DNA of 64,000 bases, taken from NCBI RefSeq assembly GCF_013249015.1, contig NZ_JABRPL010000003.1, positions 306,467-370,466 on the forward strand, in the 5' to 3' direction. The notes below the pieces were generated by a model, which saw nothing but the letters and a program-made list of their open reading frames with translations, searched no databases and was not told the origin of the DNA. The translations under genes and the position numbers were made by a program. The stretch comes from Rathayibacter agropyri (GTDB lineage Bacteria; Actinomycetota; Actinomycetes; Actinomycetales; Microbacteriaceae). Below are positions 5,791-47,541 of this stretch, piece by piece. Within the stretch, counting starts at the first letter, position 1. Each line of letters begins with the position of its first letter.

Positions 5791-6339
5791 ATGACCCCTT
5801 TCAACGATCAGGCGATGGAAGCCGAGCACAAGCTCGGTAATTTCTCGGTCCTCATCCTCGCCATCGTGGCGCTTCTCTGCGCGGTTGGGCCGACAGCAAC
5901 CGATTCTCCCCTTGTCGGCATAGCATTCGTCGTCCAGGCGCTGGTCCTAGTCATGATCGGATGGCGCACGCTACAAGTTCAGACAAGGCAACGACGCATC
6001 ATGTTGAGTCTCGCCACGCTGGTGACGGTCGGAATACCAATCTGGACCGCGGCTGTAACACTTGGCGTGCTGAAGGTGATGCGGTCTGACAACCAGCAGC
6101 AGATCGTCTCATGCGGCCAAGCCGCGTCAGCCGACGGTCTCCACCAAAGGATTGGTGATGTTACCGACCAATTGCTGCCGCCCGCGACCATATGTCGAAC
6201 AGTCGAAGGAAATGTCTATTTCCTGACACCGGTTCCGCAGACTGCCATTCTAACTGTCGTATATGTGGTCTTGCACCTCGTGGTTATCGGACTTCTCTGG
6301 ATTTCCTTTTTTGGGATAAGAATGCCTAAGCGCTTTTAG
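5791..6339 (+). CDS. Unrecognised four-span membrane protein
   Basis: About 182 residues from ATG 5791; an in-frame ATG at 5815 is an alternative. Four hydrophobic segments are visible, roughly residues 16-34, 43-59, 71-90 and 152-175. An extracytoplasmic or cytoplasmic loop of about 60 residues holding two cysteines (VSCGQAASADG and ATICRT) lies between spans three and four. Base composition is lower in GC than the surroundings and codon choice is less biased, which suggests recent acquisition. I do not recognise the family. It is divergent from the PycTM-like and SRPBCC genes. Confidence 0.6.
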   Translation: MTPFNDQAMEAEHKLGNFSVLILAIVALLCAVGPTATDSPLVGIAFVVQALVLVMIGWRTLQVQTRQRRIMLSLATLVTVGIPIWTAAVTLGVLKVMRSDNQQQIVSCGQAASADGLHQRIGDVTDQLLPPATICRTVEGNVYFLTPVPQTAILTVVYVVLHLVVIGLLWISFFGIRMPKRF

Positions 6340-7023: not shown

Positions 7024-8034
7024 TCACGCCGCCGCCACTCCCGGAGGCCCAGTCGTCGCCCGCCGCACCAGCTGCGTCGGCAGCTGCACGTGCAGCGAAT
7101 GCGGCGCACGCCCGGCCATCAGGGTGATCAGCATCTCGGCGGCGGTCGCGCCGAGGGTCTGCATGGGCTGGCGGACGGTGGTCAGGGGCGGGTCGAAGCG
7201 GGAGGCTTCGGGCACGTCATCGAAGCCGATCACCGAGAGATCGTGTGGCACGGCGAGTCCGAGGTGGGTGGCGGTCTCGATGATGGCGAGGGCCGAGACG
7301 TCGTTCGCGGCGAAGACGGCGGTTGGCCGGTCCGGGAGGGACAGCATCCAGGAGGCGGGACGCCGTGCGGTGTCGTGGTGGTAGTTGCCCACCCGCAGGA
7401 GGCGCTCGTCAAAGGCGACGCTCGCCTCCGCCAGCGCCGCCCGGTAGCCGGCCTCACGCAGCCGCGCCGAGCGCAGGTCGCCGCGGCCGGCCACGAAGCC
7501 GATGCGGCGGTGCCCGAGGGCGAGCAGGTGCCGGGTGGCGAGTAGGGCGCCGCCGAAATTGTCGGATTCGACGGTCGGCAGGTCGGCCCGGCCGGTATGC
7601 GGGTCGACGGCGACGAGCGGGATATCGGTGGGCGCGCTCACGACGGAGGGGGTCACGAGGATGGCGCCGTCGAGCAGCGTGCCGCTGAGTCGGCTGAGCG
7701 AGCGCCGCTCCCAGCCCTCCTGCTCGCCCTCGTGCGAACCGGAGTAGGCGAGCAGGTCGAAGCGGGAGTCGGCGAGTACCGAGCCGACGCCCTTGAGGAT
7801 CTCGGCGCTGAACGGCTCGAAGCCCGCGACGAGTACCCCTATGACGCCGGTGCGCCGTGAGCGCATGCTGCTGGCGACGAGGCTCGACTCGTAGCCGAGT
7901 TCGCGCACGATCTCGAGGACGCGGGTGGCCGTGGCGGGCGCGATCCCGTACCGGCCGTTAACGGCTTTCGACACCGTTGCAACCGAGACTCCGGCCGCTG
8001 CGGCGACGTCGTGGATGGTCGGACGCAAGGTCAT
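7024..8034 (-). CDS. LacI family transcriptional repressor of the adjacent sugar locus
   Basis: A 336-residue protein with the canonical LacI layout. The N-terminal HTH is residues 5-25 (IHDVAAAAGVSVATVSKAVN), followed by the hinge (AASSMRSRRTGVIGV) and a periplasmic-binding-protein-like sensor with FAANDVSALAI and VIGFDDVPEA near the C terminus. It is transcribed divergently from the ABC importer and glycosidase genes and should repress them until a glycoside-derived inducer binds. Candidate operators lie in the shared 153-bp intergenic region. A C-terminal fragment of a related LacI protein survives at 19750-20037. Confidence 0.92.
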   Translation of the reverse strand: MTLRPTIHDVAAAAGVSVATVSKAVNGRYGIAPATATRVLEIVRELGYESSLVASSMRSRRTGVIGVLVAGFEPFSAEILKGVGSVLADSRFDLLAYSGSHEGEQEGWERRSLSRLSGTLLDGAILVTPSVVSAPTDIPLVAVDPHTGRADLPTVESDNFGGALLATRHLLALGHRRIGFVAGRGDLRSARLREAGYRAALAEASVAFDERLLRVGNYHHDTARRPASWMLSLPDRPTAVFAANDVSALAIIETATHLGLAVPHDLSVIGFDDVPEASRFDPPLTTVRQPMQTLGATAAEMLITLMAGRAPHSLHVQLPTQLVRRATTGPPGVAAA

Positions 8035-8054
8035 GCCCGACTGTAGCTCCTGCC

Positions 8055-8080
8055 TCGAAAACCATTTCGAAAACGTTTGA
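8055..8080. promoter_or_regulatory. Candidate LacI operators
   Basis: Two adjacent symmetrical elements in the divergent intergenic region: TCGAAA-acca-TTTCGA at 8055-8070 and AAACGTTT at 8071-8078, the latter with the CG centre typical of LacI-family sites. Position and symmetry fit repression of the genes starting at 8188 and autoregulation. Confidence 0.5.
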
Positions 8081-8187
8081 CCCCTCCGAAACCGCCGCTG
8101 ACACTGACTGTGCCCGCCCTCGCGGCGGACGCACCAGAGCGCCGCTTCCCTCGGCGGTGCTTCTCGACGAAGAGAAACGGTTGAACA

Positions 8188-9474
8188 ATGAAGTTCAGGA
8201 AAATAGCGGTGGCCACAGCAGCCCTGCTCGGCGCGGCGGCGGCCCTCAGTGGCTGCTCGGCACAGAACTCGGGGTCGAGCGACGGCACCGTCGCCATGAC
8301 CCTCTGGCAGAACTCGACCACCGGTCCCGGTCAGAAGTTCTGGGACAAGACGATCAAGGACTTCGAGGCCGCGAATCCCGGAGTGACGATCGAGTCGCAG
8401 GCCATCCAGAACGAGGACCTCGACGGCAAGCTGCAGACGGCGCTCAACTCGGGCGACGCGCCTGACGTGTTTCTCCAGCGCGGCGGCGGCAAGCTCGCGG
8501 CGATGGTGGCGGGCGGTCAGCTCAAGGACATTACGGGCGGCATTTCGGATCAGGCGCGCAGCGAGATCCCCGAGGGCTCGTTCTCGGCGAACACGCTCGA
8601 TGACAAGGTGTGGGCGATGCCGGTTGCCGTCCTCCCGGGCGGCCTCTTCTACAGCCAAGACCTTTTCACCGCGGCCGGAATCACCGAGACGCCGAAGACG
8701 ATCGATGAACTCAACTCCGCGATCACGAAGCTCAAGGGCAGCGGCACCCAGGCGGTCGCGCTCGGCGGCAAGGACGCGTGGCCCGCCGCGCACTGGTACT
8801 ACTTCTTCGCCCTGCGCGAGTGCAGCGCCGACACGATGGCTGAGGCGGCCGACACCAAGGACTTCTCGGATGACTGCTGGGTCCGCGCGGGCAAGGACCT
8901 GAAGGACTTCGCCGCCACCGAGCCGTTCAACGAGGGCTTCCTCACCACCGCCGCCCAACAGGGGGCGGGCAGCTCGGCCGGCCTCCTCGCCAACCACCAG
9001 GCATCGATGGAACTCATGGGCGCGTGGGACCCGGGCGTGATCGCCTCCCTCACTCCCGACGAGAAGCCGCTGCCCGACCTGGGCTGGTTCCCGTTCCCCG
9101 AGATCGACGGCGGCGACGGCGAGGCCGGCGCGATCATGGGAGGTGTCGATGGCTACTCCTGCTCGGCCGGCGCGCCCGACGAGTGCGTCGACTTTCTCAA
9201 CTACCTGGCCACCGCTGACGTGCAGAAGGAGTATTACGCGGCCTTCAACGCTCCTCCGGTGAACACCGTGGCGCAGGAGGCGGTCACGGAGCCGTACCTC
9301 CAGCAGATTCTCGCGGCCTACAACTCGGCGCCCTCCGTTTCGCAGTGGCTCGACACCGTCTATGGCCTCAACGTCGGCAACGCGCTGAACGTCGGAGTCG
9401 TCGACCTGCTCGCCGGCAAGAGCGACCCGGAGAAGCTGGTCCAGGCCGTCAACGCCGCCGCGGCGAAGGCGTAA
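8188..9474 (+). CDS. ABC sugar importer, substrate-binding lipoprotein
   Basis: A 428-residue protein with a lipoprotein signal peptide: positively charged start, a hydrophobic stretch, then the lipobox LSGC with Cys23 as the lipidation site. The mature part begins with a serine/glycine linker and has the family-1 solute-binding pattern (VAMTLWQNSTTGPGQKFWDK, FEAANPGVTIE, GDAPDVFLQRGGGKLA). It captures an oligosaccharide or glycoside outside the membrane and delivers it to the two permeases encoded next. As in many actinobacterial sugar importers, no ATPase is encoded here; a shared MsiK-type ATPase elsewhere is likely. Confidence 0.92.
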   Translation: MKFRKIAVATAALLGAAAALSGCSAQNSGSSDGTVAMTLWQNSTTGPGQKFWDKTIKDFEAANPGVTIESQAIQNEDLDGKLQTALNSGDAPDVFLQRGGGKLAAMVAGGQLKDITGGISDQARSEIPEGSFSANTLDDKVWAMPVAVLPGGLFYSQDLFTAAGITETPKTIDELNSAITKLKGSGTQAVALGGKDAWPAAHWYYFFALRECSADTMAEAADTKDFSDDCWVRAGKDLKDFAATEPFNEGFLTTAAQQGAGSSAGLLANHQASMELMGAWDPGVIASLTPDEKPLPDLGWFPFPEIDGGDGEAGAIMGGVDGYSCSAGAPDECVDFLNYLATADVQKEYYAAFNAPPVNTVAQEAVTEPYLQQILAAYNSAPSVSQWLDTVYGLNVGNALNVGVVDLLAGKSDPEKLVQAVNAAAAKA

Positions 9475-9479
9475 CGACC

Positions 9480-10487
9480 GTGGCACTCCGCGAGAGCCCG
9501 CTCCTGCCCGTGGAGCCGACCCGCGGGACCGAGCGCACCGGAGGCGTCACCGCGACGCTTCCGGTGCGCCGGCGCCGCCGCAGTGTGGGCTGGTCGGGGC
9601 GGCTCGAGATCGCGCTCCTGGTCGGCCCCGCGCTGATCGTGTTCCTCGCCTTCGTGATCTTCCCGGTCGTGATGGCGGCGTATTACGGCTTCTTCAGTTG
9701 GCAGGGCTACGGCGCCCCGACCGACTTTGTCGGGCTCCGCAACTACCTCACGATCCTCCAGGACCCGACGTTCCACGACGCGCTTGCGCACAACGGGATC
9801 ATCGTGGTGCTCTCGCTGGTGCTCCAGGGGCCGGTCGCGATCCTTCTGGCGCTGCTGCTGAACCGCAAGCTGCGCGGGCAGTCGATCATCCGCGTGCTGA
9901 TCTTCGTGCCGTACGTGATCTCGGAGGTCGTCGTCGGCACCGGCTGGAGCCTGATGCTCCAGACGAGCGGAGCGGTGAACGGGCTACTCGAAAAGGTCGG
10001 CCTGGGTGCGCTGAAGCAGGACTGGCTCTCGGATCCGGCTATCGCGATCTGGACGCTGATGCTGATCATTACGTGGAAGTACGTCGGCTTCGCGGTCATC
10101 CTTTTCCTCGCCGGGCTCCAGGGCATCCCCGAGGAGCTTTCGGAGGCCGCGGCGATCGATGGCGCCTCTTACTGGCAGGTGCAGCGACGGATCACCCTGC
10201 CGCTGCTCGCGCCGACCCTCCGGATCTGGGCGTTCCTCTCGATCATCGGCGCGCTGCAACTGTTCGACCTCGTGTACATCATCTGGGGGCAGTACGTGTC
10301 CTCGACCGCGGGTACCTCGACGATGGCGATCTACCTCGTCACCAACGGGCGGAACGCGGGTAATTACGGGTACGGGAACGCCGTCGCGGTGGTCCTGTTC
10401 TTGATCTCGCTCGTGGTGGCGCTGCTTTATCAGCGCTTCGTGCTGCGGCGCGATACCGCGGGTGCACTGACGGGAGAGAAGCGATGA
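9480..10487 (+). CDS. ABC sugar importer, permease (MalF type)
   Basis: About 335 residues from GTG 9480, five bases after the stop of the binding protein; the upstream open frame overlaps that gene and is not coding. An arginine-rich N terminus precedes six membrane spans. The EAA loop, which docks the ATPase, is visible as EAAAIDGASYWQVQRRITLP. The pair with the next gene forms the heterodimeric channel of a carbohydrate importer of the CUT1 type. Its stop overlaps the next start as ATGA. Confidence 0.92.
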   Translation: MALRESPLLPVEPTRGTERTGGVTATLPVRRRRRSVGWSGRLEIALLVGPALIVFLAFVIFPVVMAAYYGFFSWQGYGAPTDFVGLRNYLTILQDPTFHDALAHNGIIVVLSLVLQGPVAILLALLLNRKLRGQSIIRVLIFVPYVISEVVVGTGWSLMLQTSGAVNGLLEKVGLGALKQDWLSDPAIAIWTLMLIITWKYVGFAVILFLAGLQGIPEELSEAAAIDGASYWQVQRRITLPLLAPTLRIWAFLSIIGALQLFDLVYIIWGQYVSSTAGTSTMAIYLVTNGRNAGNYGYGNAVAVVLFLISLVVALLYQRFVLRRDTAGALTGEKR

Positions 10488-15083: not shown

Positions 15084-15227
15084 TGCGGCTCAGATTCAAG
15101 AGGCCCCTCATGTCAGGGTGATCTTTGCGCGCTTCATAGCGTGGAGTGTGAGTGATCAACGGGGCGGTTCTTGCGCCACTCACACACCCTCCGTCGCTTC
15201 CCAGCGAAAACTGTTACTGTGCGCTGC

Positions 15228-16022
15228 ATGACCTCGACCACGGTGACTCCGCGCCTGCGACTTGCAAGGCCGCCAGTCATTCGCGTGCGGACGACAATTC
15301 ATTTTGCCGAGATTGAGGACCTTACTCTTAGTGAGTTGGCACCATTTGTCGTCGAAATGAGTCAAAATTACCCGAGCATCTCGGAACACTTCCCCTTGCC
15401 TCCTATTGGGGATGATGGTAGTGCCGTTGAATTTGCAGGAAGAAGTTCGGGGCTGCCGATGCCGCTTGTCTCAATGGTCGCCGACTCGGGTAACGAGATA
15501 AGTTTTCAGGCGGACAGATTGAGCCTGTCGTGGAACTTCGACCGACTGAAGCCCGACAAAATCTACCCTGGCTTCGAGCTTCTCAGAGAAGAGCTTTTGC
15601 AAGCGTTTTCGACCTTCGAAGAACAGTTGCAATCGCTTGGTCACCAAATTACTATTCAAGCGTCTCAGGTTCTCTACCGAAATTCGGTGAACGAGTTGCC
15701 GGGCGCCGGAGTGGCGCTCTACCTTTTGACCGGTCTTGAAAACATTACTGCCAGGCATATAACAGACGACCGAACGTATGCTGGCGCTCGTCTTCGCTTT
15801 CCAGCTAACGAAGGCGGCATTCGTCGATCGGTCGCAGCCGGAGTTGACAGTTCATCAGACGAAACGACTGTCCTCTGGATAAAAGTTCTCTCCCGGCCGG
15901 CTAGCAGCGAAAGCGCGTTTGTTTTGCTTGACGACGCGCACGACGAGTCAATCCGCCGGTTCATTCAATTCACGCCCGGATGGCTTCGGGAGACGTGGGG
16001 TGTCGTAGGAGGTTCCTCTTGA
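15228..16022 (+). CDS. TIGR04255-like protein, first gene of an AT-richer cassette
   Basis: 264 residues from ATG 15228. The layout resembles the sporadically distributed TIGR04255 family: an opening strand ending RVRTTIHFAEI, a helix with SQNYPSISEHFP, an all-beta middle (NEISFQADRLSLSWN), then a long helix (LLREELLQAFSTFEEQLQSL) and a second beta region (QASQVLYRNSVNELP). No catalytic motif is visible. Base composition drops sharply compared with the flanks and codon use includes many AT-ending codons, so transfer is likely. The last bases overlap the TTG start of the next gene, implying translational coupling. The family assignment is from memory of the pattern. Confidence 0.65.
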   Translation: MTSTTVTPRLRLARPPVIRVRTTIHFAEIEDLTLSELAPFVVEMSQNYPSISEHFPLPPIGDDGSAVEFAGRSSGLPMPLVSMVADSGNEISFQADRLSLSWNFDRLKPDKIYPGFELLREELLQAFSTFEEQLQSLGHQITIQASQVLYRNSVNELPGAGVALYLLTGLENITARHITDDRTYAGARLRFPANEGGIRRSVAAGVDSSSDETTVLWIKVLSRPASSESAFVLLDDAHDESIRRFIQFTPGWLRETWGVVGGSS

Positions 16023-16582
16023 CTCTGCTGCAAGACGAATTTTTGACTTCCCCGAGGCATGAGGTGAAAGAGCCTTATTTCCGGGCGCGGACGTGTGCAA
16101 CTGTAACTGCACGGGAATCAAGTCCTACAAGCGGCTCTGGCGGATTCGGAGAAATGGCGGATGACGCCATCGATCAAGTCGCTCCGACTCCTCGTCCTGA
16201 CTGTGACCACTACCTTCGCCACCTCCTGTTTTCAATGGCTGCTGACCCTCGTTCAGGTTTTACCTATAGAATAGTAAATTATTTGCTGATTCTCTTGCGA
16301 CGGGTAATGGACGAAAGTAGTGTTTATCCTGCTATTACTCCCGATGGTGAAGGTGGAGTTTCGTTTGAATGGTCTTCTCAGGACTGGCTGATCGAACTAG
16401 ACCTCATTGCTGATGGTTCGTATATTCTTGTGCGGCGGCGCGGGGATGGGGTTAATGGTCAAGCGACCGTCTCTCACGGCCGCATCAAGCAGATGCCGAT
16501 AGCGTACCTGCGCTCACTTATTGACGACTATTCGAGATTCGTAGAGCTACGAAACCCGAACTGGCGCCTTAACTTTAAATAA
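16019..16582 (+). CDS. Unrecognised cassette protein B
   Basis: 187 residues if started at TTG 16019, which overlaps the upstream stop and has AGGAGG ten bases before it; I prefer it to an ATG further up that lies inside the previous gene. The N-terminal 60 residues are low in structure. Residues about 65-180 look folded: a helix (HYLRHLLFSMAADP), a second helix (YRIVNYLLILLRRVMDE), then YPAITPDGEGGVSFEWSSQD and WLIELDLIADGSYILVRR, a beta-hairpin pattern. I know no function. AT-rich codon use matches its neighbours, not the chromosome. Confidence 0.6.
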   Translation: MTLLQDEFLTSPRHEVKEPYFRARTCATVTARESSPTSGSGGFGEMADDAIDQVAPTPRPDCDHYLRHLLFSMAADPRSGFTYRIVNYLLILLRRVMDESSVYPAITPDGEGGVSFEWSSQDWLIELDLIADGSYILVRRRGDGVNGQATVSHGRIKQMPIAYLRSLIDDYSRFVELRNPNWRLNFK

Positions 16583-16583
16583 C

Positions 16584-17036
16584 ATGAGCCAGTGGATCAA
16601 GGATCAGTCCGATATTGCGGATGACGGTTGGATTTACCGTCGAATACGTCTCATCCCCGAGCACTATGTACCCATTGATCCAATTTCGGGTTTGCCAAAG
16701 ATTACAAACGCCGCCTTGGCTTATCGAGATGATGGCATGTCTGTTGCAATTGGTGAGCTTATGCAGCATCAGCAGGTGGAGGTATCGGACTTAGCCGATT
16801 TTGCTCGTCACGCGGTTGCTCGTTGTGGAGTTATAGATATCCGTGCTGCGACTGCCGGCGTTATTGCCTCTGTAGACGAGCGTGATGAGAATGAAGGACG
16901 CGGCCGGGCTCACGGCTTGGTTCGAACTGATGCACCGCCGCCGGATCGCGAACGGTGGGCGCTTGTTCGTGACCAGATTAGGCGAAAGATGTCTCTCTGC
17001 GACTCGCCCGCTCTCGAGTGGGTTCACACTAGTTAG
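16584..17036 (+). CDS. Unrecognised cassette protein C
   Basis: 150 residues, starting one base after the stop of protein B, so the three genes form one operon. The sequence opens with MSQWIKDQSDIADDGWIYRR, continues with a GMSVAIGELM turn, and ends with GRAHGLVRTDAPPPDRERWA. No transmembrane segment, HTH or nuclease motif is seen. The pattern of a small protein always read with partners A and B suggests a complex or toxin-antitoxin-like arrangement, but that is inference only. Confidence 0.6.
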   Translation: MSQWIKDQSDIADDGWIYRRIRLIPEHYVPIDPISGLPKITNAALAYRDDGMSVAIGELMQHQQVEVSDLADFARHAVARCGVIDIRAATAGVIASVDERDENEGRGRAHGLVRTDAPPPDRERWALVRDQIRRKMSLCDSPALEWVHTS

Positions 17037-17037
17037 C

Positions 17038-17056
17038 GTGCCTCTTGTGGAGGCAC
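17038..17056. terminator. Hairpin closing the cassette
   Basis: GTGCCTC and GAGGCAC pair around a five-base loop directly after the cassette stop, with the AraC-family gene converging from the other side. Confidence 0.55.
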
Positions 17057-18793: not shown

Positions 18794-19112
18794 GTGCGGT
18801 GCCGCCATTCTGTGCTGGTGCCGCGGTGCCGGCCGCAGCGGAGAGGGGAGAGGACGCCCCGGCGAGCGCCGTCGAGGATGGTTGCGGTTGTCGTGGTGTT
18901 CAGTTGCTCCGAGGCCGGACTCTTCGGACGCCTGCTCAGCAGGGCGGTGGAGTCGGGCGGTCGGGCCGTCCCTCCGGCTGTTCTTCGAACGTACGCGCCT
19001 CCTCCGACCGCCGCGGGCGACTATCCGCATTGCGAAACGTGTTATCGGGTCACTGTGCTGACTCCCAGCAACGCGGCGCTCGGTTCCGGGGCGCGTCAGT
19101 AGAGTCCGCTTG
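18794..19112. other. Divergent intergenic region
   Basis: This holds the promoters of the DUF7882-type gene and of the SnoaL-like gene. The segment around 19030-19060 is locally AT-richer. No repeat or hairpin stands out. Confidence 0.4.
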
Positions 19113-19562
19113 ATGAACGACCCAACAGAAGGCCCGCGTCCCGTCGATTTGTTCGCGCTGCCGCCGGAACTCGCCGCCGCGCTCGCCTCGGTCGACCAAG
19201 CCCTCTCGGCAATGGCGGCGGGGGATCCGGAGCCGTACCGCCGCTGCTGGGCTGACTCCGCCGACTCCACCCTGTACGGCGCCTTCGGCACGATCGAGCG
19301 AGGTCGAGCGGACATCGACGAGACCCTCGGCTGGGTCGCTGGTCGCTTCGCCGACGGGGAGCTGCATCCCCGCTATGACGTGGTGTACACCTCGGGCGAC
19401 CTCGCTTACGCGGTGGGCAGCGAGAGCGGGAGGACCCGGCTCGACGGTGGGGAGGTGCGTCCGCTCGTCATCCGGGTGACTCACATCCTCCGGCGCATCG
19501 ACGGGCAGGGGTGGCGGATCGTGCACCGGCACGGCGACCACCCGCCCGCGCTCGACCGCTGA
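19113..19562 (+). CDS. SnoaL/DUF4440-like (NTF2-fold) protein
   Basis: 149 residues from ATG 19113. The pattern of an NTF2-like fold is clear: the helix LASVDQALSAMAAGDPEPYR, WADSADSTLYGAFGTIERGR, then strands YDVVYTSGDLAYAVGSE and LVIRVTHILRRIDGQGWRIV, with the usual R-x-G-x-W-R-I-V-H-R-H close. Such proteins are small ligand-binding domains or isomerases; here the ligand is unknown. A long palindrome follows 41 bases after its stop. Confidence 0.85.
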   Translation: MNDPTEGPRPVDLFALPPELAAALASVDQALSAMAAGDPEPYRRCWADSADSTLYGAFGTIERGRADIDETLGWVAGRFADGELHPRYDVVYTSGDLAYAVGSESGRTRLDGGEVRPLVIRVTHILRRIDGQGWRIVHRHGDHPPALDR

Positions 19563-19603
19563 GGTGTCGCGGTCGGCTCGGCCGCAGCACGGAGGCCCGG
19601 AAC

Positions 19604-19669
19604 GCGCGCGACTGTCCAAAAGTTGTCGCACTCGACGTCGAGTGCGACAACTTTTGGACAGTCGCGCGC
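19604..19669. repeat. Palindrome family A, copy 1 (66 bp, perfect)
   Basis: Perfect 33+33 inverted repeat without a loop. The shared core of the family is AAAAGTTGTCGCACTCG and its complement. It lies just after the SnoaL-like gene and before a lacI fragment. Other copies are at 26008, 32899 and 47486. Confidence 0.95.
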
Positions 19670-19706
19670 CCGGCTCAGGCCCGGTCGCGGTGGGATTGCC
19701 TGCCTC

Positions 19707-19749
19707 CCCGACGCCGCGGCCGCTGCGGCTGGCGCGTACATCGCACCGC
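19707..19749. repeat. 43-bp exact inverted copy of an MFS gene segment
   Basis: These 43 bases are identical, in reverse complement, to 20557-20599 inside the MFS exporter gene. In the right frame they encode the same alanine-rich stretch (PDAAAAAAGAYIAP). The copy is fused directly to the lacI fragment that follows. Confidence 0.9.
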
Positions 19750-20037
19750 ATCTTCGCCGCGAACGACCAGATGGCGCTCGGCGTGCTGCGGGCGCTGCAC
19801 GAGGCGGGGCGCGCGGTGCCGGGAGACGTGAGCGTCGTCGGCTTCGATGACGTGGAGGAGTCGGCGAGCTTCTGGCCGCCGCTGACGACGGTGCGGCAGT
19901 TCTTCGGCGACACGGGGCGCCGCTCGGTCGACCTGCTGCTGCGCGAGCTGGAGTCGGGCGAGCGCACCGGCGTCTCGCTGGTGCCGACGCGCCTGATGGT
20001 GCGCGAGAGCACGGGGCCGCCGCCGCCGGGGTCCTAA
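19750..20037 (+). pseudogene. C-terminal fragment of a LacI-family regulator
   Basis: About 95 residues match the end of a LacI sensor domain (FAANDQMALGVLRALHEAG, VSVVGFDDVEESASFWPPLT, ending in VPTRLMVRESTGPP). There is no HTH or N-terminal lobe upstream: the frame instead runs back through a 43-bp piece of MFS gene and the palindrome. It is a truncated relic, related to but distinct from the LacI at 7024-8034. Confidence 0.8.
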
Positions 20038-20052
20038 GGTGCGATGTGCAGG

Positions 20053-20137
20053 GTGCGATCTGCAGGACTTCCGTGGTCCTGGAGCCTGCTCGCGCGGGTG
20101 AGAGCGCTCTTCTGGGCGTAGATCCGGCAGATCGCAC
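20053..20137. terminator. Inverted repeat between convergent lacI fragment and MFS gene
   Basis: GTGCGATCTGC (20053-20063) pairs with 20127-20137. A smaller hairpin AGGAC/GTCCT sits inside the loop. The left arm is also half of a short tandem repeat beginning at 20039. Confidence 0.5.
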
Positions 20138-20146
20138 GCCCGCGGG

Positions 20147-21535
20147 TCAGACCGGACGTCGCGCGTGCAGACGCTTTCTCAGAGCGACGAGGGCTATGGC
20201 CGTCCCCGCAATCAGTGCGATCACTCCGCCGCCGAGAGTCCCGGACTGGAGCTGCGCCGAGATCTCCACGAGTGATGATCCGAGTGCCAGGCCGGCTGCG
20301 ACTCCCCACTGCTGGGCGGCGGTGAGAATCCCTGCGGAGGCTCCGTGCTCGCCGCTCCGAAGGCCACGAGAACCAACGACGGTCGCCACGACACCGCACA
20401 GCACAAGACCGAAGCCGGCGAGACTCGTGCCGACGACGACTTGCACGAGTGCGGCGACCCCGTGGTCGACCGGGGCTGACAGGGTCACTAGGCCGAGCGC
20501 CATGGCGACGAATCCGCTGAGCGCGGCGCGGTGGGGGCCGATCGTTCGCAGAAAACGCGGTGCGATGTACGCGCCAGCCGCAGCGGCCGCGGCGTCGGGA
20601 AGGAAGGCACTCCCGGAGGCAAACCGAGACCACCCGAGGACGTCCTGCATATAGATGGAGGCGAAGTAGACCATCGCCCCGCCGGAGAGCGGTGCTGCGA
20701 AGCTGAGTAGCGCGGCGGCGCGGACCGATCGGCGTGCGAGAAGCCCGGGCGGCACCAAGGGGTTCGAGGTCCGCCGCTGCTGACGAGAGAGCACCACGAA
20801 TCCTGAGAGAGAGACGGCGGCGAGGCCGAGAAGCCACGGTCCTCGGCTGGCTTCGTTACTCAGCACCGACAATGCTGCGACCAGGCTGACACTGGCCGTC
20901 GCAAAAAGCAGGGCACCGACAATGTCGACTCGCTCACCGGGCACTCTCGTTCGAGGGAGCACCGAGGCGGCGGCAGCCCCGAGCACTGCCGCGAGGATGG
21001 TGCAGAAGACGAAGACGCTCCGCCAGTCGGCGAATCCGACGAGTACGCCACCGAGGACGACACCGGCGGCGAATCCGGCTGACGCCGCTGCCCCCCACAG
21101 ACCGAGCCACCTCGGCCGCTCCGCCGAGCTAGTGAGTTGAGTGAGAAAGGCGAGAGCTGATGGCGCCAACAATGCTGCGGATGCTCCCTGCGCAACCCGA
21201 GCGACGATCAGCACACTGAAAGACCAGGCCAGTGCGGCGAGCAGACTCGTCATCGCGAAACCGCTGATACCCCAGAGAATCAGGTTCTTCGGACCCCAGC
21301 GTTCTGAGGCGCGCCCACCCAAGAAGAGGAGCGCGGCGAACCCGACCGCGTACCCCGTCACAACCCAGTGCGAGAGAGCTGGGCTGACGCCGAAGTCGTC
21401 CTGGAGGTCAGGGATCGCAATATTGATGATGGAGAACTCCATCGCAACCAGCAGCTGCATGCCGCAGAGCAGCCACAGACCCGCGGGATCACGACGGGAC
21501 CGTAGTTGAGTTCCGGCGCGGGCGCTCCCTGTCAC
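20147..21535 (-). CDS. MFS exporter, last gene of the nucleoside operon
   Basis: 462 residues from GTG 21535, overlapping the upstream PRTase stop by four bases. About 14 hydrophobic spans fit the DHA2/EmrB drug:proton antiporter group. Span 1 reads MQLLVAMEFSIINIAIPDLQ, with the motif-D1-like run, and the loop between spans 2 and 3 reads GGRASERWGPKN. Being translationally coupled to five sugar-phosphate and nucleotide enzymes, it most likely exports their product and may give self-resistance. A 43-bp piece of the gene is copied in inverted orientation about 0.8 kb beyond its 3' end. Confidence 0.88.
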   Translation of the reverse strand: MTGSARAGTQLRSRRDPAGLWLLCGMQLLVAMEFSIINIAIPDLQDDFGVSPALSHWVVTGYAVGFAALLFLGGRASERWGPKNLILWGISGFAMTSLLAALAWSFSVLIVARVAQGASAALLAPSALAFLTQLTSSAERPRWLGLWGAAASAGFAAGVVLGGVLVGFADWRSVFVFCTILAAVLGAAAASVLPRTRVPGERVDIVGALLFATASVSLVAALSVLSNEASRGPWLLGLAAVSLSGFVVLSRQQRRTSNPLVPPGLLARRSVRAAALLSFAAPLSGGAMVYFASIYMQDVLGWSRFASGSAFLPDAAAAAAGAYIAPRFLRTIGPHRAALSGFVAMALGLVTLSAPVDHGVAALVQVVVGTSLAGFGLVLCGVVATVVGSRGLRSGEHGASAGILTAAQQWGVAAGLALGSSLVEISAQLQSGTLGGGVIALIAGTAIALVALRKRLHARRPV

Positions 21536-22074
21536 CGTCCCTCGGCCGGAAAGAGCGGAAGGTGCGTCAGGACATCAACGTCACTGCGTTCATCGCCCTC
21601 GGTAGCGATCGCGAGTACCTGGATGACGTGCCCGCCTGCTTGATCAGCGAGGCTACGCAGTGCTTCGACAGTTGCTCCGCTACTGACGACCTCATCAACG
21701 ATCGCGACACTATTGCCGTGAAGCTTCGCTCTGTCCGCCTCGTCGATAAATAGCATTTGCTCGCCAGCGGTGCCCATTGTTGTCAGCGATACAGCGAGCG
21801 GCTGACGCATAGTGGGTCTCCTTTTCTTGCGCGCGAGCACATAGCTGAGACCTCGACGTCTGGCGATCCCATGAGCGAGCAGTATCCCGCCGCTCTCTCC
21901 GGCGAGCAGCACATCGGCATGAGACGTGAGCCGGGCGGTTAGCTGATCGGCGCAATGCTCGGTCAGTTCGACATCGCCATAGAGTTTCAGGAAGGCGACG
22001 CTCACCATCTTCGACACCGGGACCACAGGGAGATCCCTGCTCACGCCGTCAAAAGACGCAGTGTGCGCGGTCAT
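21532..22074 (-). CDS. Adenine phosphoribosyltransferase-like transferase (AgmE-like)
   Basis: 180 residues from ATG 22074. The type-I PRTase fold is clear: an APRT-like N terminus (DLPVVPVSKMVSVAFLKLYG), VLLAGESGGILLAHGIARRR, the basic loop ARKKRRPTM, and the PRPP-binding loop near residues 122-136 (VAIVDEVVSSGATVEAL). Ordinary APRT joins adenine to PRPP. In the angustmycin pathway, a homologue joins adenine to the 2-pyrophosphate of D-allulose 6-phosphate instead. The presence of dedicated epimerase and pyrophosphokinase genes in the same operon favours that second role. It overlaps both neighbours by four bases. Confidence 0.85.
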   Translation of the reverse strand: MTAHTASFDGVSRDLPVVPVSKMVSVAFLKLYGDVELTEHCADQLTARLTSHADVLLAGESGGILLAHGIARRRGLSYVLARKKRRPTMRQPLAVSLTTMGTAGEQMLFIDEADRAKLHGNSVAIVDEVVSSGATVEALRSLADQAGGHVIQVLAIATEGDERSDVDVLTHLPLFPAEGR

Positions 22075-22766
22075 TGAAGTTTCTCCTTCTCGGGTCGGTG
22101 TGCCACCGCTGCCCGTAGGTCGGCAAGGCGGTTGGGGAAAGTTTCGCGCGCGGGAAAAACCGAACTGCCCAGAACGAACGAATCGGCTCCTGCCTCGAGG
22201 AGTGGTGTCACGCGTTCGGGACTGATCGCTCCGTCGACCTCCACACGGCGAACGGAGGACTGACCCACCCACGAAGCCGCCGCCCGAACAGTCTGCACCG
22301 CCTCTGGACGGAACGGTCGTCCGGTTCCGCCGGGCACGACGCTCATCACGGTCAGTCGCTGGGGCTCGACCGCGTCCATAACCCACGGCTCGGGAAGCTC
22401 GTCGCCGTCCAGCACCAGACCGACCTCCACGCCTGATGCGGCGGCAGACCTTAGCATCGAGATAGCCCTCGGGTTCAGTGAGCACTGATGCAGGCATATG
22501 GCGGCGGGCGTGCGATCAAGGATCAGTGGGAGGAGCTGTTCGGGCTCGGCGAGCATGACGTGAACATCCACGGGCATGGTGAGGCGTGCCTGAAGGTCGC
22601 TGATCACCTCGGGCGGCAGTCCGAGGTTCTTGTAGGACGGGTCGATGATGTCAATGTGCAAACGTTCGACACCCAGAGCCGCGATCTTTGTCAGCTCATG
22701 CTCGAGACGCGTCTGGTCAATACAGATGACCGATATCGACAGTCGCAGATACCGCGGACGCGTCAT
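22071..22766 (-). CDS. Ribulose-phosphate 3-epimerase family protein (allulose-6-P epimerase-like)
   Basis: 231 residues forming a TIM barrel of the RPE family. The metal ligands line up with those of known enzymes: His37 and Asp39 (HIDIID), His69 (VDVHVML) and Asp178 (VEVDGAIS). The phosphate loop is VVPGGTGRPF, with the C-terminal glycine-rich site FVLGSSVF. RPE proper acts on ribulose 5-phosphate, while close relatives epimerise D-fructose 6-phosphate and D-allulose 6-phosphate. Its place between PRPP-synthetase-like and APRT-like genes suggests the latter, supplying the psicose sugar of an angustmycin-type nucleoside. Confidence 0.85.
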   Translation of the reverse strand: MTRPRYLRLSISVICIDQTRLEHELTKIAALGVERLHIDIIDPSYKNLGLPPEVISDLQARLTMPVDVHVMLAEPEQLLPLILDRTPAAICLHQCSLNPRAISMLRSAAASGVEVGLVLDGDELPEPWVMDAVEPQRLTVMSVVPGGTGRPFRPEAVQTVRAAASWVGQSSVRRVEVDGAISPERVTPLLEAGADSFVLGSSVFPARETFPNRLADLRAAVAHRPEKEKLQ

Positions 22767-23755
22767 GCGAACACTCCGCTGTGATCAGTGTGGTCACAGC
22801 GGTCGGACGCCGGCGCGAGTAGCGGTCGAAGCTGCTCGGCGCATCCATCGACGAAGGACGTGGTCGACACCCGCGCGATCGAAGGGTCGGGGTAGGTGTC
22901 AAGAGCGGCGAGATTCTCTAGTCGTCCGTCACTGAGGAGCCGGCGGACTCGGTTCCGACCGGTCTCCGTTAGCCGAAGGTGGGCCGCTGCCGCAGCTATT
23001 CTGGACGCCCCGAGCGCTTCGAGCGCGTCTACCGCCTCCTTCATGGTGCCGGCACTGCACACGAGGTCGTCAAGGATGAGGACGTCGCGTCCCGCGAGAC
23101 TGTCTCCGTCAATCTCCAGCGTCACCGTGACGGTGGACGCTCCAAGCCGCAGCTTCTCGGCCACGAGGTACTCGAGTCCGACTGTTCGGGCTACTTCGGT
23201 GACCAGCCCCGCAGAACCAGCGTCTGGTGCGACGAGCACGGGGTTGACGAAACCGGAGTTCGACACGCTCGAGCGGAAGAAATCGATCGCCGACGCTTGA
23301 GAGAGACGAAGCGGTTCATAGGCCTTCGACAGCACGTCGACTGAGCCCGACTGGATCGTCACGATGCGGTCTGCTCCTGCGACTCGGAGGAGATCCGCAA
23401 CGAGCGCGGCCGTCGTTGACCGATACTCTCCTTCGACCGGGCGGTCTTCTCTCGAGTACGGAAGGTGTGGCACGAACACGGTCACCTCTGCCGCGCCGTA
23501 TTGGCGGTAGGCACGCACAGTGACAAGCAGGGCGAGTAGCGCCGTATGCAGATCCTCCTCTGCGCCGGACAGCGACTGGAGAATCAGCACGTGAGCACCA
23601 TCCGCTCGCCCTGGAAGCTGAGCATAAATCTCTCCGTCGGGGAACGTTCCATCACTGCAGCGGCATAGCCATGTGACTGACGGCAGCAGGGCGAGTATCC
23701 GTTGAGACGCCCCCGGGTGGCTGGCTTCGAAAGCAGAACACGTCGTAAGGATCAT
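22763..23755 (-). CDS. PRPP-synthetase-like sugar-phosphate pyrophosphokinase (AgmC-like)
   Basis: 330 residues with two tandem PRTase-like folds, the layout of ribose-phosphate pyrophosphokinase. CSDGTFPDGEIYAQL matches the F-x-D-G-E motif of the N-terminal half. The ATP/flexible region is HLPYSREDRP at residues 97-106, diverged from the PYARQDR of housekeeping enzymes. The PRPP loop is DVLILDDLVCSAGTM near residues 224-238. The divergence at the nucleotide and sugar loops suggests a specialised substrate. In angustmycin synthesis a homologue pyrophosphorylates D-allulose 6-phosphate at C2. Four-base overlaps on both sides. Confidence 0.85.
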   Translation of the reverse strand: MILTTCSAFEASHPGASQRILALLPSVTWLCRCSDGTFPDGEIYAQLPGRADGAHVLILQSLSGAEEDLHTALLALLVTVRAYRQYGAAEVTVFVPHLPYSREDRPVEGEYRSTTAALVADLLRVAGADRIVTIQSGSVDVLSKAYEPLRLSQASAIDFFRSSVSNSGFVNPVLVAPDAGSAGLVTEVARTVGLEYLVAEKLRLGASTVTVTLEIDGDSLAGRDVLILDDLVCSAGTMKEAVDALEALGASRIAAAAAHLRLTETGRNRVRRLLSDGRLENLAALDTYPDPSIARVSTTSFVDGCAEQLRPLLAPASDRCDHTDHSGVFA

Positions 23756-24375
23756 GCTGGACGACTTCCCTGATCGTCAGAGAGATCGATTTCGAGAGCA
23801 AGCGCGTCCATCATGTTCGAGCCGGAGTATGAATGCCGCGCGAGTGCAAGCAGATCCTCAGTGGCGTTGACGGCGATCGTCCGCTTGTATTTCGTGAAAA
23901 GAGGCACATCTGATGCGGAGTCGCCCAGCGCGACGATATCGTCATCAGCAGCGCCGATCGCTGACTGGATCTGCGCGGCAATGCGGGGCTTGTCTTCGGG
24001 GTTCAGTATCTTCATGCCGTACTGAGAGCCACGAACATGGTCGAAGTCTCCGACGAGGCGCGCAAATTCTTCCGGTGCCATTGTGAGGAGGCAGGTGACG
24101 ATTCCGACGCTGCGGAGCCCCGAGATGGCAGCATCCAGGTCGTCGATCTTCGCCACACTCGCCCAAGCGTCGCTGAAGTACATGAGGTGATCCGGCCCCC
24201 ACAACTCGAGTGCTCGACGCGAGAAGTGAACACTGTCTATGTGGCCGGCGCGGAATTCGGCCTCGAGGAGTTGAATTTCAGGTAGAGTTCCCGCCGCCAG
24301 CGAAATCGCTTGCGCCGCCGTGGAATCGCGGATGATAGTTCCGTCGAGGTCGAAGATGACCAGTTTTGTGGTCAC
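23752..24375 (-). CDS. HAD-family phosphatase (SerB/AgmB-like)
   Basis: 207 residues from GTG 24375. The HAD motifs are complete: motif I FDLDGTI with Asp9 and Asp11, motif II in CLLTMAPEEF, a lysine in PEDKPRIA, and motif IV GDSASD with Asp152 and Asp156. A small helical C1 cap sits after motif I, as in phosphoserine phosphatase. In the proposed pathway it would dephosphorylate the nucleoside 6'-phosphate to release the free nucleoside. It overlaps the LOG fragment upstream (GTGA) and the kinase downstream (ATGA). Confidence 0.85.
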   Translation of the reverse strand: MTTKLVIFDLDGTIIRDSTAAQAISLAAGTLPEIQLLEAEFRAGHIDSVHFSRRALELWGPDHLMYFSDAWASVAKIDDLDAAISGLRSVGIVTCLLTMAPEEFARLVGDFDHVRGSQYGMKILNPEDKPRIAAQIQSAIGAADDDIVALGDSASDVPLFTKYKRTIAVNATEDLLALARHSYSGSNMMDALALEIDLSDDQGSRPA

Positions 24376-24581
24376 GATGCGGCGACCTCGATGGCCGCCT
24401 CGACGTCGCCGCCATTCACCAGCACTTCATCGGCGATCGCGCCCGTCAACCCTGGAGCACAGCCGTCGATCACGGCGCTGCCGCTCGATGCCAGAAGAGC
24501 ACCCCTAGGCGGCGCAGCGACCTCAGAGGACGGAAACGTTCCCATTGACGCTCCGCAGAACACAGCACTATCACTCAACAC
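24372..24581 (-). CDS. LOG-like phosphoribohydrolase fragment, first gene of the operon
   Basis: 69 residues. The run AVFCGASMGTFPSSEVAAPP and then DGCAPGLTGAIADEVLVNGG aligns with the first third of LOG (Lonely Guy) nucleoside 5'-monophosphate phosphoribohydrolases, which are about 190 residues long. The catalytic PGGxGTxxE motif and everything after it are missing, and the residues around the nucleotide-binding glycines have drifted. It ends in a four-base overlap with the phosphatase. It may be a relic that survives because it leads translation of the operon, or a domain of a split bifunctional protein. Confidence 0.6.
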   Translation of the reverse strand: MLSDSAVFCGASMGTFPSSEVAAPPRGALLASSGSAVIDGCAPGLTGAIADEVLVNGGDVEAAIEVAAS

Positions 24582-25099
24582 GACCCCCCGGTCAAGTTCT
24601 GTATGTCAGTCACGTTCTGCGCGATGTCAGTCACGTTCTGCGCGGTGAACTAAGCTTGCCCGAGCCTAGTCGCGCTCATGATGATGCGCAACCGGCATCG
24701 AAAGCTCGCGCAATGCTCGTGAGCAATCAGGTTGGCGGCGAAGAGGCACTGCGTATCCGTTCTTCGCGCAGCCCACGCGCTCATATGCTGATTCCGCGTT
24801 CAGCGAGTTGAGAGCGTTAATGGATTTTTGTCGATCGGACCGAGGCTGCGTCTGCTGCGAGAGCGCTACTGATCGTGGTCACGGAGTGAGCCCGGCAGGA
24901 ATCCCGCCTGGATCCTCAGTGCTGTGCGACATCGATCACCTGCACGTGTGATTCTGATTGCCTCGCTCAGGTCCTGGGAAGCAGCGCGGAGGAGGTGCAT
25001 GGTCGTATCGCTCTCGCAATCGAGCTAGGCCTTGGCCGCGGAGTCGACAGCGCACGATACTGTGAGTATTTTCACCCCCCGAACTACAAGGAGATGCAC
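24582..25099. other. Divergent intergenic region (about 520 bp)
   Basis: This lies between the minus-strand nucleoside operon and the plus-strand DUF808 gene. Apart from the 21-bp tandem repeats there is no convincing gene; open frames here are short and have non-coding character. Composition is closer to 60% GC than to 70%. Confidence 0.5.
24603..24644. repeat. Two exact 21-bp tandem repeats upstream of the nucleoside operon
   Basis: Units 24603-24623 and 24624-24644 are identical and carry GTCAGTCACGTTCTGC. They sit 21-63 bases before the first start codon of the operon. A 21-bp spacing equals two helical turns, which fits a pair of regulator sites on one face of the DNA. Confidence 0.85.
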
Positions 25100-25990
25100 A
25101 TGTCGGTCGGCCTGCTGGCGGTTGTCGATGACATCCTCACCGCTGCCCTGAAGGCGAGCGCCAAGACGGCGGGTGTCGTGATCGATGACGCGGCGGTGAC
25201 TCCGCAGTATGTGCAGGGACTCACGCCCGCGCGGGAGCTGCCGGTGGTGTGGCGGATTGCGCTCGGGAGCCTGTTCAACAAGTTCATCATCATTATTCCG
25301 CTGGCGCTGCTGCTCTCGGCGTTCGCGCCCTGGGTGCTGCCGTACTTGCTGATCCTCGGCGGCGGCTTCCTCTGCTTCGAGGGAGCGGAGAAAGTGCTGG
25401 AGTGGTTCGGCGTGCAGCACGCGGCGGGTGAGACTCAGGCGCGCGACGAGAAGAAGCTCGTCTTCGGCGCCATCCGCACCGACCTGATCCTGAGCACCGA
25501 GATCATGCTCATCGCGCTCGACGGCCTCGACCCCGACTTCGGCGTCGGTCCGACGCTCGGCGCGCTGGCTCTCGTCGGGTTGGGGATGACCCTGCTCGTG
25601 TACGGCGCGGTCGCCCTGCTGGTCAAGATCGATGACGTGGGCCTGGGGATGATGAAGAACGCGGCCCGGGGCGTGCGGCGCGCGGGAGCGAGGATCGTTG
25701 CGTCGATGCCCGCCGTCTTCCGTGCGATCAGTATCGTCGGCACGCTCGCCATGCTGTGGGTCGGTGGCCACCTCGTCGTCGCGAACCTGGCCGAGACGTT
25801 CTGGCATGCGCCCTCCGACCTGGTTCACGCCGTCACGCACGCCGTCGAGACGGCCGGGCCGGTCGTCGTCTGGCTCGCGGATACGGCTGTCTCGATGGTG
25901 TTCGGCCTTGTGCTGGGGCTGGTCATCGCCGCCGTGGTGCTGGGCGTCTCGCGCCTCCTCCAGCGCGATACGGCGGCCGCCACGCACTGA
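25100..25990 (+). CDS. DUF808 (YedI-type) inner-membrane protein
   Basis: About 296 residues from ATG 25100, with AAGGAG six bases upstream. It opens with the family signature of a small N-terminal helix (MSVGLLAVVDDILTAALKAS, then VIDDAAVTPQYVQGL). About seven hydrophobic spans follow. The charged loop GAEKVLEWFGVQHAAGETQA between early spans, and EKKLVFGAIRTDLILSTEI, are typical of DUF808. The function is unknown; it is thought to be an integral membrane protein of the cell envelope. A family-A palindrome follows the stop. Confidence 0.88.
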   Translation: MSVGLLAVVDDILTAALKASAKTAGVVIDDAAVTPQYVQGLTPARELPVVWRIALGSLFNKFIIIIPLALLLSAFAPWVLPYLLILGGGFLCFEGAEKVLEWFGVQHAAGETQARDEKKLVFGAIRTDLILSTEIMLIALDGLDPDFGVGPTLGALALVGLGMTLLVYGAVALLVKIDDVGLGMMKNAARGVRRAGARIVASMPAVFRAISIVGTLAMLWVGGHLVVANLAETFWHAPSDLVHAVTHAVETAGPVVVWLADTAVSMVFGLVLGLVIAAVVLGVSRLLQRDTAAATH

Positions 25991-26007: not shown

Positions 26008-26059
26008 AGTGTCCAAAAGTTGTCGCACTCGCGGTCGAGTGCGACAACTTTTGGACACT
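26008..26059. repeat. Palindrome family A, copy 2
   Basis: 24-bp perfect arms and a four-base loop, between convergent genes, where it can act as a bidirectional terminator. Confidence 0.95.
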
Positions 26060-26097
26060 GGGCGTGGGGGGTGCGCGCGAAGGGCCGCCCCCGCGCC

Positions 26098-47457: not shown

Positions 47458-47485
47458 GCGCTCATCCTGCACCCGGCGGCGGCGC

Positions 47486-47541
47486 CGAGAGTCCAAAAGT
47501 TGTCGCACTCGCGGCCGAGTGCGACAACTTTTGGACTCTCG
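47486..47541. repeat. Palindrome family A, copy 4
   Basis: 26-bp perfect arms with a four-base loop. Unlike other copies it lies between divergently transcribed genes, upstream of both, so it is not acting as an ordinary terminator here. Confidence 0.95.

What the first reader, a model, noticed from the sequence alone, without database searches (positions are those of the whole stretch)
20147..24581. Angustmycin (psicofuranine)-type nucleoside operon in a putative Microbacteriaceae genome
Seen: six minus-strand genes, each overlapping the next by four bases, encode a LOG fragment, HAD phosphatase, PRPP-synthetase-like kinase, RPE-like epimerase, APRT-like transferase and MFS exporter. Known: angustmycin C is made from fructose 6-phosphate by an allulose-6-P 3-epimerase, a pyrophosphokinase of the PRPP-synthetase family, an APRT-like transferase and a phosphoribohydrolase/phosphatase (AgmD, C, E, B). 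The same four activities plus an exporter are here. No AgmF-like dehydratase is present, so the expected product is angustmycin C-like rather than A. Inference: this strain may make an adenine-psicofuranose nucleoside with antibiotic and cytokinin activity.
Basis: partly seen in the sequence, partly recalled or inferred. Interest (0 to 1): 0.92.

Follow-up and report, generated by a model that had tools for sequence, protein, structure and literature searches.

The report
Psicofuranine-type nucleoside operon in Rathayibacter
This plant-associated bacterium carries a compact, horizontally acquired set of genes that very probably builds psicofuranine, a nucleoside antibiotic known from Streptomyces, but one of the usual genes is a broken stump and the final-step gene is absent.

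Summary
Observation confirmed: five intact minus-strand genes and a 69-codon LOG stump (20147-24581), joined by five 4-base overlaps. Interpretation largely supported. The PRPP-synthetase-like, RPE-like, APRT-like and HAD proteins group with angustmycin/guvermectin-type cluster enzymes, not with housekeeping or other relatives; the housekeeping alternative, tested for RPE and PRS, is rejected. The APRT's best PDB match is GvmE, adenine phosphopsicosyltransferase. Gene order matches a Streptomyces guvermectin-type cluster (L089). The window is a Rathayibacter near R. iranicus, which shares the operon under purifying selection (dN/dS 0.15-0.29). It is a low-GC insertion at a LacI/DUF808 junction lacking it in all 8 of 14 other Rathayibacter genomes examined there. 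Corrections: the LOG gene (AgmA) is a remnant, and R. iranicus has no LOG-family gene; no AgmF-like protein or second guaA was found there. Cytokinin activity, in the texts read, belongs to angustmycin A (and guvermectin), not to C, the product predicted here. Most likely function: making psicofuranosyl-adenine (angustmycin C) from fructose 6-phosphate and adenine, adenine coming perhaps from MTA/SAH nucleosidase. A new member of a known kind; no product has been shown.

The parts
20147..21535 (-). MFS exporter, last gene; relatives sit directly after the APRT gene in L127 (52% id) and L003 (43% id)
   Evidence: Pfam MFS_1 2.4e-44
21532..22074 (-). AgmE/GvmE-like adenine phosphoallulosyl(psicosyl)transferase
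   Evidence: best PDB hit 7f06 'adenine phosphopsicosyltransferase' 174.6 bits, next 138.6; 51% id; 8 of 8 signature columns
22071..22766 (-). AgmD-like D-allulose-6-phosphate 3-epimerase; H37, D39, H69, D178 invariant in the 5 cluster rows aligned
   Evidence: 8 of 9 signature columns
22763..23755 (-). AgmC-like allulose-6-phosphate pyrophosphokinase (PRPP-synthetase family; Gly137 where the 5 comparison rows have His)
   Evidence: 13 of 16 signature columns
23752..24375 (-). AgmB-like HAD phosphatase; D9, D11, T98, K129, D152, D156 invariant in the 4 cluster rows aligned
24372..24581 (-). remnant of agmA (LOG, AMP phosphoribohydrolase): N-terminal third only
24603..24644 (.). two head-to-tail copies of a 21-base sequence just upstream of the operon; function unknown
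   Evidence: read by eye, reprinted
20081..25039 (.). extent of the inserted DNA relative to the L151 arrangement
   Evidence: flank matches 93 bases apart in L151, 4959 apart in the window

Best explanation
The operon is an acquired agm/gvm-type pathway that makes 9-beta-D-psicofuranosyl-adenine (psicofuranine = angustmycin C) and exports it. Steps, all inferred from homology to enzymes proved in Streptomyces: the AgmD-like epimerase turns fructose 6-P into allulose 6-P; the AgmC-like kinase adds pyrophosphate from ATP at the anomeric carbon; the AgmE-like transferase swaps the pyrophosphate for adenine; the AgmB-like phosphatase removes the 6'-phosphate; the MFS protein exports the nucleoside. 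AgmF is absent, so angustmycin A is not expected. The dedicated adenine source (AgmA/LOG) has been lost, so adenine must come from general metabolism, perhaps MTA/SAH nucleosidase.
For: Order LOG-HAD-PRS-RPE-APRT is shared by L089 (Streptomyces G311; its APRT differs from GvmE at 3 of 173 aligned residues, read), L002 (Nocardia ninae), L003 (Streptomyces NRRL F-5727) and L127 (a Microbacteriaceae genome). Trees: RPE and PRS of the 6 cluster rows form clades at 100/100; holding window + R. iranicus with housekeeping enzymes is rejected (p-AU 1.5e-4 and 3.2e-32, which warns of some long branches); APRT clade 100/99 with GvmE against 11 other PRK07322-type rows, HAD clade 100/99 against 4 other HADs. 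Signature columns defined without Rathayibacter rows: cluster-type residue in 13 of 16 (PRS), 8 of 8 (APRT), 8 of 9 (RPE), 2 of 3 (HAD); one housekeeping residue in all. No indel in the four enzymes and purifying selection against R. iranicus: dN/dS 0.15-0.29 over five genes. Acquired: GC3 0.65-0.73 against 0.85-0.87 for five neighbours (0.78 for one more), near-empty site in L151, L155, L156. Pathway biochemistry: PMC8599513, parts 1-4 of 6 read. R. iranicus has an MTA/SAH nucleosidase, 114.8 bits, cut-off 73.8, and nothing like an SAH hydrolase at 1e-10.
Against: No metabolite or enzyme assay. The LOG gene is broken in the window and no LOG-family gene is found in R. iranicus. In R. iranicus the HAD frame has no ATG/GTG/TTG before position 8000 of L001. 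No cluster regulator: the LacI piece beside the operon is a truncated chromosomal gene. dN of operon genes (0.064-0.121) is above that of four of six flank genes (0.016-0.106 over the six). Single guaA in R. iranicus. The genome of L003 has an MTA/SAH nucleosidase and yet a full LOG gene, against a simple swap.
Confidence: 0.72

Rival explanations
1. Same pathway by descent, but it is decaying and makes nothing in this strain.
For: LOG reduced to a stump, no own regulator, R. iranicus HAD lacks an ordinary start codon, somewhat raised dN.
Against: Five full-length frames with five exact 4-base overlaps in the window; no indel in four enzymes between two species at dS 0.33-0.51, dN/dS 0.15-0.29.
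Confidence: 0.2
2. An Agm-like pathway with a different product: another ketose phosphate, or another purine (for example a base taken from the plant), in place of allulose or adenine.
For: No LOG-family gene, the adenine supplier, in R. iranicus; identities to the L089 enzymes are only 39-52%; the epimerase lies below the D-allulose-6-P epimerase cut-off.
Against: All 8 of 8 signature residues of the transferase are kept; order and content match a guvermectin-type cluster.
Confidence: 0.15
3. Ordinary nucleotide salvage: duplicated housekeeping RPE, PRPP synthetase and APRT.
For: The fold families are the same.
Against: Trees, AU tests and signature columns; R. iranicus has separate RPE and PRPP-synthetase genes whose products are about 30% identical to the window's.
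Confidence: 0.02

Closest known systems
agm cluster of Streptomyces angustmyceticus / S. decoyicus (angustmycins A and C; PMC8599513, parts 1-4 of 6 read)
   Same: homologues of AgmB, C, D, E and an MFS exporter; order compared with L089, since the paper's cluster figure was not seen; 4-base overlaps LOG/HAD and HAD/PRS also in L089 and L002 with the starts chosen here
   Different: no agmF, no agmR, agmA only a stump, exporter unlike the L089 one (26% over 148 residues) and placed where L089 has agmF
gvm (guvermectin) cluster of S. caniferus (PMC12292694, passages read); GvmE structure 7f06
   Same: transferase 51% identical, best PDB hit
   Different: as above
Unnamed Microbacteriaceae genome G731 (L127) and Streptomyces NRRL F-5727 (L003) clusters found here
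   Same: LOG-HAD-PRS-RPE-APRT-MFS without an agmF-like gene in the DNA seen (18 kb; 11.9-kb contig); L127's four enzymes are 44-61% identical, the nearest outside R. iranicus
   Different: L003 has a full LOG; L127 has a LacI gene and a LOG that changes frame in the held sequence
Nocardia ninae cluster L002
   Same: LOG-HAD-PRS-RPE-APRT
   Different: has an agmF-like gene, two LacI genes and a GMP-synthetase gene

Membership tests
agm/gvm (angustmycin/guvermectin) cluster | AgmD-like epimerase distinct from RPE and AlsE | tested here: met
   clade 100/100, 8 of 9 signature columns
agm/gvm (angustmycin/guvermectin) cluster | AgmC-like pyrophosphokinase distinct from PRPP synthetase | tested here: met
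   clade 100/100, 13 of 16 signature columns
agm/gvm (angustmycin/guvermectin) cluster | AgmE/GvmE-like phosphoallulosyltransferase | tested here: met
agm/gvm (angustmycin/guvermectin) cluster | AgmB-like HAD phosphatase | tested here: met
   clade 100/99 of 6 cluster rows against 4 other HAD rows; signature columns 2 of 3
agm/gvm (angustmycin/guvermectin) cluster | AgmA (LOG) phosphoribohydrolase | tested here: not met
   N-terminal remnant only; 0 PF03641 matches in R. iranicus; the window's own genome is not held
agm/gvm (angustmycin/guvermectin) cluster | AgmF dehydratase (needed for angustmycin A, not for C) | tested here: not met
   not found in the window nor in the R. iranicus genome at 1e-10
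agm/gvm (angustmycin/guvermectin) cluster | LacI-family cluster regulator (AgmR/GvmR) | tested here: not met
   only a C-terminal piece of a chromosomal LacI beside the operon, matching from 19745; GvmR motif not found within 2 mismatches in 19001-25213, one site with 3 at 19467. A whole LacI gene lies 12 kb away within 7024-9486 and was not tied to the operon
agm/gvm (angustmycin/guvermectin) cluster | MFS exporter(s) | tested here: met
   MFS gene present, but hardly similar to the L089 one
agm/gvm (angustmycin/guvermectin) cluster | production of psicofuranine or angustmycin A | not testable with these tools
   needs LC-MS

The most novel reading that the evidence does not exclude
In this Rathayibacter lineage the psicofuranine pathway has shed its own adenine-releasing enzyme (AgmA) because the cell already frees adenine in every methylation cycle through MTA/SAH nucleosidase and has no SAH hydrolase; the LOG stump survives only as a leader frame that couples translation into the phosphatase gene. 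The result would be a minimal four-enzyme-plus-exporter psicofuranine operon used by plant-colonising bacteria.
Probability: 0.25. Interest if true: 0.62.

Novelty: new member of a known kind. Interest (0 to 1): 0.5.

Why it matters
It extends a proved Streptomyces nucleoside-antibiotic pathway to plant-associated Microbacteriaceae, and points to a set of clusters (window, R. iranicus, L127, L003) in which an exporter stands where L089 has agmF, so that angustmycin C rather than A is predicted. It makes a simple question testable: how a producer gets adenine without AgmA. If psicofuranine is made in planta it could act on competing bacteria through GMP synthesis. Variants without AgmF or AgmA were already anticipated in general terms in a 2025 review (PMC12648386, its mining section read).

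Tried and rejected
LacI piece beside the operon as AgmR: rejected. It is the end of a chromosomal LacI gene, 86-93% identical at protein level in 8 of 8 other Rathayibacter regions. GvmR 14-base palindrome (motif from PMC12292694 passages): nothing within 2 mismatches in 19001-25213. Viral contigs: 61 pattern matches, none a relative. Second guaA: one copy each in the genomes of R. iranicus, L003, L004 and L089; two in Nocardia, one of them inside its cluster. The first RPE and PRS trees held three housekeeping rows read on the wrong strand (hk_L112, hk_L117, hk_L087); corrected and rebuilt. HAD hits of G752, G191 and G113 have no other core gene within the fetched 18 kb (G113 has an MFS gene like L089's), and G1154 has only a distant PRPP-synthetase-like and a LacI-like gene. 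The S. angustmyceticus, S. decoyicus and S. caniferus clusters did not turn up by name in the one genome scan, which returned its ceiling of 80 loci, so L089 and GvmE stand in for them. Literature: 'angustmycin' with 'Rathayibacter' gives 1 paper (the agm paper, one mention), with 'Microbacteri' 0; three Rathayibacter-related papers or listings seen gave no report of this operon (listings; passages of PMC6965331 and PMC7143919). Supplementary Fig. 25 of PMC8599513, which may list related clusters, could not be read.
Full report
OBSERVATION. The six reading frames are present on the minus strand at the stated places, and 5 of 5 junctions overlap by exactly four bases. Pfam and NCBIfam give MFS_1, phosphoribosyltransferase (PRK07322 type, over the curated cut-off), ribulose-phosphate epimerase (top NCBIfam hit D-allulose-6-phosphate 3-epimerase, below its cut-off), PRPP synthetase and HAD. 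The first frame (24372-24581) is a 69-codon remnant of a LOG protein. It covers profile positions 4-58 of 178, matches two PDB LOG sequences at 1.5e-5, and ends before the PGGxGTxxE motif that PMC8599513 names as conserved.

WHOSE GENOME. No genome is held for the window. The closest named relative found is Rathayibacter iranicus: 89.6% DNA identity over 15.8 kb of flanks and 85.9% over 4.2 kb of the operon. In the genus search 1 of 15 genomes, R. iranicus itself, has the kinase at 1e-30. The species is unknown. GC in 2-kb steps runs from 0.54 to 0.735.

IS IT AGM? The transferase's best PDB match is 7f06, adenine phosphopsicosyltransferase (174.6 bits; next an APRT at 138.6); identity 51%. 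One scan of genome contigs returned 80 loci, its ceiling. L001 (R. iranicus), L002 (Nocardia ninae) and L003 (Streptomyces NRRL F-5727) hold HAD, PRS, RPE and APRT in the same order. L004 has APRT alone; of the other 76, 75 have APRT alone and 1 APRT plus an RPE-like hit (many of these loci are short). Genome searches added L089 (2 of 392 Streptomyces genomes with a PRS hit, the other being that of L003) and L127 (HAD in 3 of 398 Microbacteriaceae genomes; 2 of the 3, R. iranicus and G731, have the whole set). In a phylum draw 4 of 396 had the HAD and only the Nocardia the set. Searches scored at most 5-7 candidates per genome, so the counts are lower bounds. L089 has LacI, MFS, LOG, HAD, PRS, RPE, APRT and SAH-hydrolase-like genes, and an APRT that differs from GvmE at 3 of 173 residues. 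I use it as stand-in for the proved clusters, whose own sequences I did not obtain and whose figure I did not see.

TREES AND RESIDUES. RPE: six cluster rows form a clade at 100/100, apart from seven housekeeping-type RPEs, E. coli Rpe and AlsE; forcing window + R. iranicus with the housekeeping RPEs costs 51 log units, p-AU 1.5e-4. PRS: clade 100/100 against 4 housekeeping rows and L131; 125 units, p-AU 3.2e-32. The tool warned of long branches (L002, L003, E. coli Rpe and one housekeeping row in RPE; L002 in PRS). APRT: clade 100/99 of 8 rows with GvmE against 5zgo and 10 of the other 76 loci. HAD: clade 100/99 against 4 other HADs. Signature columns defined without Rathayibacter rows: cluster residue in 13 of 16 (PRS; 1 housekeeping, 2 neither), 8 of 8 (APRT), 8 of 9 (RPE; 1 neither), 2 of 3 (HAD; 1 neither). 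Changes shared with the cluster enzymes include His to Gly137 in PRS, FPDGE where most comparison rows read FANGE, a SAGT-like loop where they read DTGGT or close to it, and VDE for VDD in the transferase. That these are the catalytic, nucleotide and sugar-phosphate loops is recalled. The title of the GvmE paper speaks of an 'active glutamate' (seen only in a reference list); whether it is E128 is not known to me.

SELECTION. Window against R. iranicus: dN/dS is HAD 0.15, MFS 0.18, PRS 0.26, APRT 0.27, RPE 0.29, with dS 0.33-0.51 and no indel in the four enzymes. Six flank genes gave 0.065-0.385. The LOG remnant matches its R. iranicus counterpart at 47% over 38 residues and is hardly alignable beyond, so it is not kept as a LOG. 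Its frame is open in both species and its stop overlaps the HAD start by four bases in both (GTGA, ATAA), which would fit translational coupling; this is speculation. In R. iranicus the HAD frame then begins at ATA, with no ATG/GTG/TTG before position 8000 of L001.

ORIGIN. Operon genes have GC3 0.65-0.73; DUF808, CDF, AraC, SnoaL and the LacI piece 0.85-0.87, DUF7882 0.78. DUF808 is in 15 of 15 Rathayibacter genomes. I fetched the region from 8 of the 14 others: 0 of 8 hold an operon gene at 1e-8. In three the LacI-end and DUF808 matches are 93, 33 and 33 bases apart (L151, L155, L156); in five 1.3-5.8 kb of other DNA lies between. In the window the same matches are 4,959 (L151) or 5,028 (L155, L156) bases apart. 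The junction is a place where DNA comes and goes.

ADENINE. PMC8599513 shows AgmA releasing adenine from AMP. R. iranicus has no PF03641 match; 3 of 16 genomes searched have one (2 of 15 Rathayibacter, plus G731). R. iranicus has an MTA/SAH nucleosidase and nothing like an SAH hydrolase at 1e-10; G311 and G731 show the reverse; the L003 genome has both and also a full LOG, which does not fit a simple swap. That nucleosidase-derived adenine makes AgmA dispensable is an inference from four genomes, and from R. iranicus rather than the window strain.

PRODUCT AND ACTIVITY. Without AgmF the expected product is angustmycin C. Cytokinin activity is reported for A in the text read, and the C-only recombinant did not inhibit M. 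smegmatis; guvermectin is called a plant growth regulator (abstracts). A review says that both A and C act by inhibiting GMP synthesis. The Nocardia cluster carries a GMP-synthetase gene and that genome has 2 copies, against 1 each in R. iranicus and the L003, L004 and L089 genomes.

PRIOR ART. PMC8599513 notes that AgmB is 51% identical to a Rathayibacter toxicus HAD protein. A 2025 review names AgmB-E as the minimal set and foresees clusters without AgmF or AgmA; it does not mention Rathayibacter or Nocardia. I found no paper that describes this operon, but the library lacks most subscription papers, and supplements could not be read. PMC6965331, PMC7143919 and PMC12292694 were seen as passages only.

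VERDICT. A real, acquired, probably working angustmycin-C-type operon: a new member of a known kind, with an instructive loss of AgmA.

Noticed in passing
window 19745-20037 (+): C-terminal piece of a chromosomal LacI regulator, N-terminal half lost; 86-93% identical to LacI ends in 8 other Rathayibacter regions. No match to the piece in R. iranicus L001.
   Followed up: yes
window 15084-17048: Low-GC block (its three ORFs GC 0.51-0.54) without a match in R. iranicus L001; one TIGR04255 match below cut-off and a weak PADLOC PDC-M32A match, no Pfam hit.
   Followed up: partly
L002 4161-5732 (-): Nocardia ninae agm-like cluster contains a GMP-synthetase gene, a likely self-resistance copy.
   Followed up: partly
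L004 10001-10516: Streptomyces pinistramenti has a lone GvmE-like transferase beside arginase and MFS genes of the same families as those near L089's cluster; perhaps a cluster remnant.
   Followed up: no
L127 9910-10489: The LOG gene of the Microbacteriaceae genome G731 is read in two frames in the held sequence; real change or sequencing error not known.
   Followed up: partly
L001 7706: R. iranicus HAD frame starts at ATA; no ATG/GTG/TTG before 8000.
   Followed up: partly
window 19600-19669, 26010-26064, 47482-47536: Copies of a short dispersed repeat, also in R. iranicus L001 near 6126-6193, matched in both orientations.
   Followed up: no
window 24603-24644: Tandem 21-base repeat just upstream of the operon, possible operator.
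   Followed up: no
L131 7851-9409: Distant HAD plus PRPP-synthetase-like pair in another actinobacterium; a possible different pathway.
   Followed up: no
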